Positions 27,539-28,612 of a stretch of 48,791 nt of DNA are shown here, one piece after another. Position 1 is the first letter of the stretch. Each line of letters starts with the position of its first letter. The stretch is from Candidatus Methanoperedens sp. (GTDB taxonomy: Archaea > Halobacteriota > Methanosarcinia > Methanosarcinales > Methanoperedenaceae): assembly GCA_012026795.1 (NCBI GenBank), contig VEPM01000033.1:1-48791 (forward strand), given 5' to 3'. The notes under the pieces are model-generated. The model did not search any database and had not been told where the DNA came from. It saw only the letters and a list, made by a program, of their open reading frames with translations. The translations under genes and the position numbers were made by a program.

Positions 27539-27886
27539 TCATAATACTATCCATTTTCCTAAGGCTACACCTGCTCCGCATATAAGCAGGCTCAACATGA
27601 TATTAGCTCCAAAAACATTATACTCCCTGCGTTCAAGGAGCTTCCAGCTCTCATAACTGAAGGTGGAAAATGTAGTAAATCCGCCAAGTATTCCTGCATC
27701 AGCAAAGTATGGAAGGGGATTTGTCCCGAATGTGATCACAGAAAGGATCGTTGAGCCAAGAAAATTCACAAGCAATGTCCCTGTTGGAATATCCTTCCAG
27801 ACAGGACATATCCCTGAGACCAGATAGCGCAGCACTGCACCAAGTGCCCCTCCGGCGCCTGCCAATAATACAGGGATCAAGTTCAT
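27539..27886 (-). CDS. crcB: CrcB/Fluc fluoride channel subunit 2
   Basis: A 115-residue membrane protein with four hydrophobic helices and the CrcB signature GGFTTFSTFSYE. N-terminal GGALGAVLRYLVS and the TLLVNFLGS segment lining the pore are present. CrcB/Fluc exports F- from the cytoplasm as a dual-topology dimer. Its start overlaps the stop of the other crcB by ATGA, and the two small subunits with differing sequences suggest a heterodimer of opposite orientations. Confidence 0.93.
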   Translation of the reverse strand: MNLIPVLLAGAGGALGAVLRYLVSGICPVWKDIPTGTLLVNFLGSTILSVITFGTNPLPYFADAGILGGFTTFSTFSYESWKLLERREYNVFGANIMLSLLICGAGVALGKWIVL

Positions 27887-28239
27887 GCTCCCAGCCCCTT
27901 TTTTGCAAATACCCTTCCCAGGAAAACGCTAACCAGGCAAAAACCAATGCTAACCATAATATTTAATAAGGCAATTGAACCCGGAAGTTGCATTGTCTGA
28001 ACAATGAATGTTGAAAATGTTGTCAGGCCACCGCAAAAGCCGAAACCTACGACATATCGTTCACGTTCGCTAAAAAAACCAAGTTCTGTTGCATACATCA
28101 GGTAGCCAAGGACAAAACTCCCGGTAATATTTACGAGTAAAGTACTGAAAGCACCGGGAAGCGACAACAAGAGAGATTCTCTTAATGCAGAACCAAAAAA
28201 TCCCCCGATCAAAATATAAACAAACCTGGTTTTATCCAT
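27883..28239 (-). CDS. crcB: CrcB/Fluc fluoride channel subunit 1
   Basis: The 118-residue first gene of the fluoride operon has four predicted helices and the conserved GFCGGLTTFSTFIVQ. GGFFGSALRE and TLLVNITGSFVLGYL match the pore-forming segments. It shares the CrcB plan with its neighbour but is clearly diverged, as in heteromeric Fluc pairs. It is preceded by a 66-nt leader tail and a structured element (28306-28374), which may control it. Confidence 0.93.
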   Translation of the reverse strand: MDKTRFVYILIGGFFGSALRESLLLSLPGAFSTLLVNITGSFVLGYLMYATELGFFSERERYVVGFGFCGGLTTFSTFIVQTMQLPGSIALLNIMVSIGFCLVSVFLGRVFAKKGLGA

Positions 28240-28305
28240 TTTTGGTTTAATAACGGGATTATTTAAATATTTTAAGTTCGCCTGGAATTTAATAAAATCG
28301 GGTTG

Positions 28306-28374
28306 GTCCGAGGGGGGATTTACACCCCCATATAGCGAACAGAGGAGCTACCCGTTAGGAGGTCGGGCTCGGAC
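28306..28374 (-). ncRNA. Structured leader RNA upstream of crcB (possible novel riboswitch)
   Basis: On the minus strand the 5' GTCCGAG pairs with the 3' CTCGGAC (7 bp, perfect). Inside are two hairpins: CCCG/CGGG with a nine-base loop containing CCTCCT, and GGGGG/CCCCC with a seven-base loop, making a three-way junction of 69 nt. A TATA-like TTTATATG (28398-28405) is placed so that transcription would start at the first base of this structure. A downstream GCGAAC (minus strand, 28276-28281) is complementary to GTTCGC inside the junction (28335-28340), offering an alternative fold. It does not match the fluoride riboswitch consensus that I know. The minus orientation is inferred from the promoter and crcB. 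Confidence 0.5.
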
Positions 28375-28397
28375 ACTGATTATTCAATCATCATAAT

Positions 28398-28405
28398 CAT
28401 ATAAA
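28398..28405 (-). promoter_or_regulatory. TATA box of the crcB operon leader
   Basis: Minus-strand TTTATATG is centred about 27 nt upstream of the 5' end of the structured leader at 28374, the usual archaeal TATA-to-start distance. It supports transcription of the leader toward crcB. Confidence 0.45.
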
Positions 28406-28612
28406 TCATATTGTGTTATGTTGTATTTAAGGTTATCCGTCGGACTGATTTTGTGTGTATTTTTGTATTTTTTGTAATAATTTTCACTGGATTTCAAGAT
28501 GCAGAAAAAAACATCATTTTAATATAATAGATCTACCGTTTTATAACCATCGTACTGCAAAAACGTCATAAAAAGTAGCCTTTGCTATCGCAGGGTTAGA
28601 TAAAAGAGGTTC

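What the first reader, a model, noticed from the sequence alone, without database searches (positions are those of the whole stretch)
28306..28374. Structured crcB leader not matching the fluoride riboswitch
Seen: a 69-nt minus-strand element with a perfect 7-bp closing stem (GTCCGAG/CTCGGAC), two internal hairpins and a strand that can re-pair with GCGAAC downstream. A TATA box sits at the right distance to start transcription exactly at its 5' edge, and it leads into crcB-crcB-DUF190. Known: crcB genes are often controlled by the crcB-motif fluoride riboswitch. Inference: the sequence lacks the CUGAUG-type core, so this may be a different fluoride-responsive or other regulatory RNA class, or a small RNA with anti-SD-like loops.
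Basis: partly seen in the sequence, partly recalled or inferred. Interest (0 to 1): 0.65.

Follow-up and report, generated by a model that had tools for sequence, protein, structure and literature searches.

The report
New conserved small RNA of Methanoperedens
The structure next to the crcB genes is not a fluoride-responsive leader but a stand-alone small RNA gene, so far unknown to the RNA family library, that nearly all species of a genus of methane-eating archaea keep and that may silence messenger RNAs by covering their ribosome-binding sites.

Summary
In detail: window 28306-28374, minus strand, is a structured RNA element. Homologues occur in 26 of 31 Ca. Methanoperedens genomes and in one of two sister-genus genomes, and nowhere else in the 238 genomes of the class searched. 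Its three helices (7-bp closing stem, CCCR/YGGG hairpin, GGGGG/CCCCC hairpin) are paired in every homologue, two pairs change on both sides, and no Rfam family matches. The predicted middle stem is not conserved.

The crcB interpretation fails. The RNA sits beside crcB only in this genome and its closest relative. Elsewhere it lies near sucD/argG, trpS and others; crcB occurs without it; true fluoride riboswitches exist in 16 of 31 genomes, never together with crcB. A conserved TATA box upstream and a T-run downstream mark an independent gene.

Its most striking feature is an invariant loop, CCUCCUA, matching the anti-Shine-Dalgarno end of 16S rRNA. Best explanation: an intergenic, trans-acting sRNA that masks ribosome-binding sites, working like M. 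mazei sRNA154/sRNA41. That step is inferred: no conserved target was found. All 27 aligned copies carry an unexplained (ATN)4 motif at the predicted start site.

The parts
28306..28374 (-). structured core of the small RNA gene (69 nt)
   Evidence: fold; 28 homologues in 27 genomes; covariation and 100% pairing
28368..28374 (-). closing helix P1, 5' strand GUCCGAG
   Evidence: invariant apart from one A-U to G-U change in L009
28306..28312 (-). closing helix P1, 3' strand CUCGGAC
   Evidence: invariant
28351..28367 (-). hairpin P2: CCCG-loop-CGGG; its innermost pair covaries G-C / A-U / G-U
   Evidence: 5 sequences with both sides changed, 1 G-U
28356..28362 (-). invariant loop CCUCCUA, matching the anti-Shine-Dalgarno end of 16S rRNA (CCUCCU)
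   Evidence: 23 of 23 distinct sequences; 16S tail GGATCACCTCCT found in G003, G006, G015
28330..28350 (-). conserved single-stranded region ...CUCYUCUGUnGCUA..., pyrimidine-rich, length-variable at one spot; not a conserved helix
28313..28329 (-). hairpin P3: GGGGG-UGUAAAU-CCCCC; 7-nt loop fits the T-loop pattern UNNRA
   Evidence: two sequences with both sides changed (G-C to U-A and to A-U); loop column counts
28424..28430 (-). conserved TATA box (TTAAATA in GGATAACCTTAAATAC) of the RNA gene
   Evidence: TATA-type box 54-102 nt upstream of P1 in all 27 aligned homologues
28384..28400 (-). (ATN)n motif ATGATTATGATGATTGA at the predicted transcription start; operator or 5' leader, function unknown
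   Evidence: ATNATNATNAT in 27/27 homologues, 22-43 nt after the start of the TATA box; only about 5 expected in the whole 48.8-kb window on both strands
28294..28297 (-). T-run, putative archaeal terminator of the RNA gene
   Evidence: T4+ within 35 nt of P1 in 21 of 27 homologues, 8.7 expected
28259..28269 (-). separate TATA-like box of crcB (TATTTAAATAA, 20-30 nt before its ATG); suggests that crcB has its own promoter
   Evidence: sequence; similar TATA + ATCCCG context before crcB in G018 and G020
27883..28239 (-). crcB1 (neighbour, not part of the RNA gene)
   Evidence: Pfam PF02537

Best explanation
The element is the core of an independent small RNA gene of Ca. Methanoperedens and its sister genus. 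Shown by comparison: a structured RNA of fixed architecture, a TATA promoter upstream, a T-run downstream, variable neighbours. Inferred: it is transcribed as an RNA of roughly 110-140 nt (AU-rich leader of about 25-50 nt, the 66-71-nt structured core, a short C/U-rich tail). The closing helix presents the invariant loop CCUCCUA, the conserved strand CUCYUCUGU and a T-loop-like hairpin. The pyrimidine-rich single strands pair with G-rich (Shine-Dalgarno-like) sequences of selected mRNAs and block ribosome binding, while the stems give stability. The (ATN)n element at the start site would control when the RNA is made. The placement next to crcB in this genome is incidental.
For: Genus-wide conservation at one copy per genome (26 of 31 genomes, one of them with two copies), limited to the family. 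RNAalifold on its own finds the same three helices; pairing 100%, 7 cells with changes on both sides, covariation score above all 500 shuffles and all slid registers. The three G-U pairs (L009, L013, L028) would be C-A mismatches on the other strand, and T-runs follow on this strand (21/27 vs 4/27 on the other): strand assigned. Gene neighbours vary: sucD and argG in many, including the sister genus (L010); trpS, EamA, TrmB, GDT1, aldehyde dehydrogenase elsewhere; crcB in two. Loop CCUCCUA is invariant while adjoining loop positions vary in sequence and length and matches the 16S anti-SD. Frame is not conserved (core lengths 66-71 nt, indels not multiples of 3), so it is not a protein. Precedent: M. 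mazei sRNA154 loop 2 and sRNA41 mask ribosome-binding sites (PMC5867862).
Against: No transcript data were available. The perfect partner UAGGAGGU before ATG is no more frequent than its reversed control in 31 genomes, GGAGG-N3-9-ATG is not enriched in the window, and no set of orthologous targets shared across the genus emerged, so the masking step rests on the loop sequence and on analogy. The invariant CUCYUCUGUnGCUA strand has a one-base length change, which suits a structural or protein contact as well as base pairing.
Confidence: 0.45

Rival explanations
1. Independent structured RNA that acts through a protein or as a scaffold/decoy rather than by pairing with mRNAs: the tRNA-like T-arm (7-bp stem, 5-bp stem, 7-nt UNNRA loop) and the invariant single strands form a tertiary fold bound by a protein, or the anti-SD loop acts as a ribosome-tail mimic.
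For: T-loop-type heptaloop directly stacked on a 7-bp stem as in tRNA, invariant unpaired bases in all three single-stranded regions, more than antisense pairing needs; no conserved mRNA target found.
Against: ARAGORN and the Rfam tRNA model do not match; a pure scaffold would not need a loop matching the anti-SD.
Confidence: 0.38
2. Cis-acting leader of crcB: a new fluoride-responsive or other riboswitch class controlling crcB-crcB-DUF190.
For: In the window it lies 66 nt before crcB on the same strand.
Against: crcB adjacent only in G000 and G018; crcB in G002, G019, G020, G023 has no such element; downstream genes elsewhere are unrelated or on the opposite strand; crcB has a TATA-like box of its own; T-run between RNA and crcB.
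Confidence: 0.02
3. A small protein-coding gene or leader peptide overlaps the element (an SD-like GGAGG and an ATG precede it in some genomes, e.g. L016 ...EVSEPTTSYGLLFCCY*).
For: An ATG frame runs into the element in several homologues of one clade.
Against: Frame is not kept: indels of 1-4 nt in the loop and middle region, stop codons in different places in all three frames; substitutions keep base pairs instead of codons.
Confidence: 0.04
4. A DNA-level element (operator, replication or repeat element) rather than an RNA.
For: The closing stem is a palindrome and the (ATN)n and inverted-repeat motifs upstream look like operator DNA.
Against: Strand-specific G-U pairs, promoter upstream and T-run downstream on one strand, one copy per genome, conserved unpaired loops.
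Confidence: 0.05

Closest known systems
Methanosarcina mazei sRNA154 and sRNA41 (intergenic trans-acting sRNAs; PMC5867862)
   Same: intergenic archaeal sRNA; sRNA154 has a conserved stable structure with loops, one carrying an anti-ribosome-binding-site sequence; lineage-limited
   Different: no hit with the covariance model outside the Methanoperedens family; three-helix closed junction; no known targets or nitrogen link here; the sRNA154 sequence itself was not compared directly
C-rich-loop bacterial sRNAs (FsrA, RsaE/RoxS; from own knowledge)
   Same: exposed C/U-rich loops complementary to Shine-Dalgarno sequences
   Different: bacterial, unrelated in sequence and architecture; comparison is by analogy only
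Fluoride riboswitch, crcB motif (RF01734)
   Same: lies upstream of crcB in one pair of genomes
   Different: no match to the model; not linked to crcB in other species; real RF01734 copies exist separately in the genus
tRNA (RF00005)
   Same: 7-bp closing stem, 5-bp T-stem-like hairpin with 7-nt UNNRA loop directly adjacent, total about 70 nt
   Different: no two-base linker, no anticodon arm, no GG in the D-like loop, no CCA, no score with ARAGORN or the Rfam tRNA model

Membership tests
Fluoride riboswitch (RF01734) | sequence/structure match to the family model | tested here: not met
   cmscan of the window at gathering threshold and of 28150-28520 at E<=10 gives no RF01734
Fluoride riboswitch (RF01734) | consistent position upstream of fluoride-resistance genes | tested here: not met
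   crcB adjacent in 2 of 27 genomes with the RNA
Fluoride riboswitch (RF01734) | fluoride-dependent structure change | not testable with these tools
   needs in-line probing
tRNA / tRNA-like RNA | cloverleaf with D-, anticodon and T-arm, score in tRNA models | tested here: not met
   ARAGORN finds only tRNA-Thr in the window; Rfam tRNA not reported at the element in the window or in 12 homologous loci; no conserved anticodon arm
C/D box sRNA | conserved C (RUGAUGA) and D (CUGA) boxes | tested here: not met
   ATGATGA occurs upstream in some homologues only (e.g. L001, L003-L005, L028), not in others; the U8 match is E 1.2, far below its gathering score
H/ACA sRNA | match to H/ACA models | tested here: not met
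   no H/ACA family among Rfam matches
intergenic trans-acting archaeal sRNA (the kind of sRNA154/sRNA41) | own promoter and terminator in an intergenic region | tested here: met
   TATA box in 27/27, T-run in 21/27, variable neighbours; sequence evidence only
intergenic trans-acting archaeal sRNA (the kind of sRNA154/sRNA41) | conserved single-stranded region complementary to ribosome-binding sites | tested here: met
   invariant CCUCCUA loop, matching the 16S tail
intergenic trans-acting archaeal sRNA (the kind of sRNA154/sRNA41) | identified mRNA target(s) | tested here: inconclusive
   pattern searches over 31 genomes gave no genus-wide conserved target
intergenic trans-acting archaeal sRNA (the kind of sRNA154/sRNA41) | expressed as a discrete transcript | not testable with these tools
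   no transcriptome held

The most novel reading that the evidence does not exclude
A new RNA class: a compact, tertiary-folded, T-loop-containing RNA that displays a copy of the 16S anti-Shine-Dalgarno sequence and acts on translation as a whole (a ribosome-tail mimic competing for strong Shine-Dalgarno messages and favouring leaderless ones), under control of an unknown regulator that reads the (ATN)n site, specific to anaerobic methane-oxidising archaea of the Methanoperedens family.
Probability: 0.1. Interest if true: 0.8.

Novelty: new member of a known kind. Interest (0 to 1): 0.5.

Why it matters
Ca. Methanoperedens are nitrate- and metal-reducing methane oxidisers that matter for the methane budget, and a search of the open-access library found no report of a regulatory RNA in them (not exhaustive). 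A genus-wide RNA with an invariant loop and a conserved control site gives a defined object to look for in existing metatranscriptomes, and a test of whether translation control by masking of ribosome-binding sites, known from Methanosarcina mazei, extends to methanotrophic archaea. It also heads off a mis-annotation as a crcB leader.

Tried and rejected
Fluoride riboswitch/crcB leader: rejected. Middle hairpin TAGC/GCTA: rejected, not compensated in L010, L019, L027. Alternative pairing of CCUCCUA with UAGGGGG (seen by RNAfold in L014, L016, L028): shortened or broken in L001, L010, L026, whereas P3 is kept by compensation; left as a possible switch but not favoured. Small ORF: rejected on frame. 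Fur-regulated iron sRNA (RyhB/FsrA analogue), suggested by the Fur-box look of the (ATN)n motif: not supported; only weak partial Pfam FUR matches, none in G018, and the dtxR-feoA-feoB region lacks the motif and in G015 shows a DtxR-type TTAGGTGTACCTAA site instead. Viral contig hit L055: a chance match in a GC-rich phage-like contig. Brevibacterium hit L039: not examined further, taken as chance. Class-level hit G216 (E 0.005): by my reading in a RadA-like coding region, taken as chance. Target search with both loops in order: mostly recovers the RNA gene itself; the G005:C15 hit is a Pro-rich coding stretch.

Full report
What is there. The minus strand of window 28306-28374 reads GUCCGAG-CCCG-ACCUCCUAA-CGGG-UAGCUCCUCUGUUCGCUAUAU-GGGGG-UGUAAAU-CCCCC-CUCGGAC. 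Alone it folds only moderately better than shuffled sequence (z -2.39), which by itself would not convince. The comparative evidence does. A DNA search of 100 relatives found homologues in 26 of 31 genomes of the same genus (own included), in one of two of a sister genus, and in none of the other families of the order. A covariance model built from 15 of them (R1) recovered all copies, including ones left out of the model such as the window itself at 79 bits, and nothing credible in the rest of 238 genomes of the class (the single E 0.005 hit looks like part of a coding region). A pattern scan of 84,980 GTDB species names the carriers: Ca. Methanoperedens and Methanoperedenaceae, plus one Brevibacterium hit taken as chance. 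Viral contigs gave only a chance match.

Structure. In the alignment of 23 distinct sequences all 16 pairs of three helices form in every sequence; the innermost pair of the first hairpin changes G-C to A-U in five sequences, and the outer pair of the second hairpin changes to U-A and to A-U once each; the covariation score exceeds all 500 shuffles and all slid registers. The number of pairs changed on both sides (2) is small because the RNA is so conserved, and 38 of 500 shuffles reach it. RNAalifold independently proposes exactly these helices. The alignment was fitted to the model, but the hand-made partition shows the same changes. The three G-U pairs (L009, L013, L028) would be C-A mismatches on the opposite strand, which assigns the strand. 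The last hairpin has a seven-base loop, mostly UGNRAAU, that fits the T-loop pattern UNNRA, directly stacked on the seven-pair closing stem as in a tRNA, but the element is not a tRNA.

Gene, not leader. Upstream of every aligned copy is a TATA-type box; downstream a run of four or more T lies within 35 nt in 21 of 27 (8.7 expected), against 4 of 27 beyond the other end on the other strand. Neighbours vary: sucD upstream in one large clade and in the sister genus, often with argG downstream; trpS, EamA, TrmB, GDT1, aldehyde dehydrogenase or opposite-strand genes elsewhere. sucD-RNA-argG, shared with the sister genus, is probably the ancestral site (inference). Across 31 genomes crcB occurs in 7, on a contig with the RNA only in those two; two genomes (G019, G023) have crcB and no RNA. 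Fluoride riboswitches (RF01734) occur in 16 of 31 genomes and never with crcB. crcB has a TATA-like box of its own 20-30 nt before its ATG. The crcB-leader reading is therefore rejected.

How it probably works. The loop CCUCCUA is invariant, whereas its loop neighbours vary in sequence and length, and it matches the anti-Shine-Dalgarno end of 16S rRNA, whose GGATCACCTCCT was found in three genomes of the genus. By my estimate a given 7-mer would turn up in a random 70-nt RNA about once in 250 cases. The middle strand and the tail are also pyrimidine-rich. In M. mazei, sRNA154 masks the glnA2 ribosome-binding site with an anti-RBS loop and sRNA41 masks ribosome-binding sites in polycistronic mRNAs (review PMC5867862). 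The same mechanism is the best guess here. Against it: UAGGAGGU before ATG is no commoner than its reversed control in 31 genomes, GGAGG before ATG is not enriched in the window, and the candidate genes differ between the five genomes examined apart from a NrfD-like gene (G015, G006), a class I aldolase-like gene (G000, G003) and one more pair (G006, G015) (names are my reading of the translations). Rare strong Shine-Dalgarno sequences could mean a small target set, or that the loop does something else. I put about 0.9 on 'independent structured RNA gene' and 0.45 on the full statement with masking of ribosome-binding sites.

Unexplained. All 27 copies carry ATNATNATNAT 22-43 nt after the start of the TATA box, at or just after the expected transcription start; the motif is otherwise at chance level in the window. 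It resembles a Fur box, but a true Fur is not evident and the feo operon lacks it. In the sucD clade an imperfect inverted repeat whose arms change together lies between TATA and this motif. Whether these are operators or part of the RNA needs transcript ends.

Limits. No expression data; relatedness of the sequences inflates covariation counts; genomes are mostly metagenome assemblies, so absences (5 of 31) are not all real, and several loci are cut by contig ends; gene names come from Pfam matches or, for some neighbours, from reading the translated start.

Noticed in passing
27 homologous loci; window 28384-28400 (-): (ATN)4-5 motif at the predicted transcription start in 27/27 homologues; looks like a Fur box but no convincing Fur or iron link was found.
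   Followed up: partly
upstream regions of L015, L016, L018-L020, L022-L025 and others: Imperfect inverted repeat between TATA box and (ATN)n whose arms change together between species (CCTAC..GTAGG, CCTCC..GGAGG, CTCT..AGAG); possibly an operator that co-evolves with its repressor.
   Followed up: no
31 genomes of the genus: crcB (7 genomes) and the RF01734 fluoride riboswitch (16 genomes) never occur in the same genome (chance 0.0024 if genomes were independent, which they are not); the riboswitch must control another exporter, and crcB in this genus appears riboswitch-free.
   Followed up: partly
G004: C37:70792-70859 and C13:7170-7236 (L003, L028): One genome carries two divergent copies of the RNA; the second (L028) has a compensatory A-U pair and a G-U pair in the last hairpin. 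Could be a paralogue or a mixed assembly.
   Followed up: no
31 genomes; window: TAGGAGGT before ATG is no more frequent than the reversed pattern, and GGAGG before ATG is at chance level in the window: strong Shine-Dalgarno sequences seem rare in this genus.
   Followed up: partly
L066 (G015), upstream of dtxR-feoA-feoB: TTAGGTGTACCTAA, a DtxR-type operator, directly before the dtxR start codon in G015; in the other genomes looked at the operon follows an upstream gene instead.
   Followed up: no
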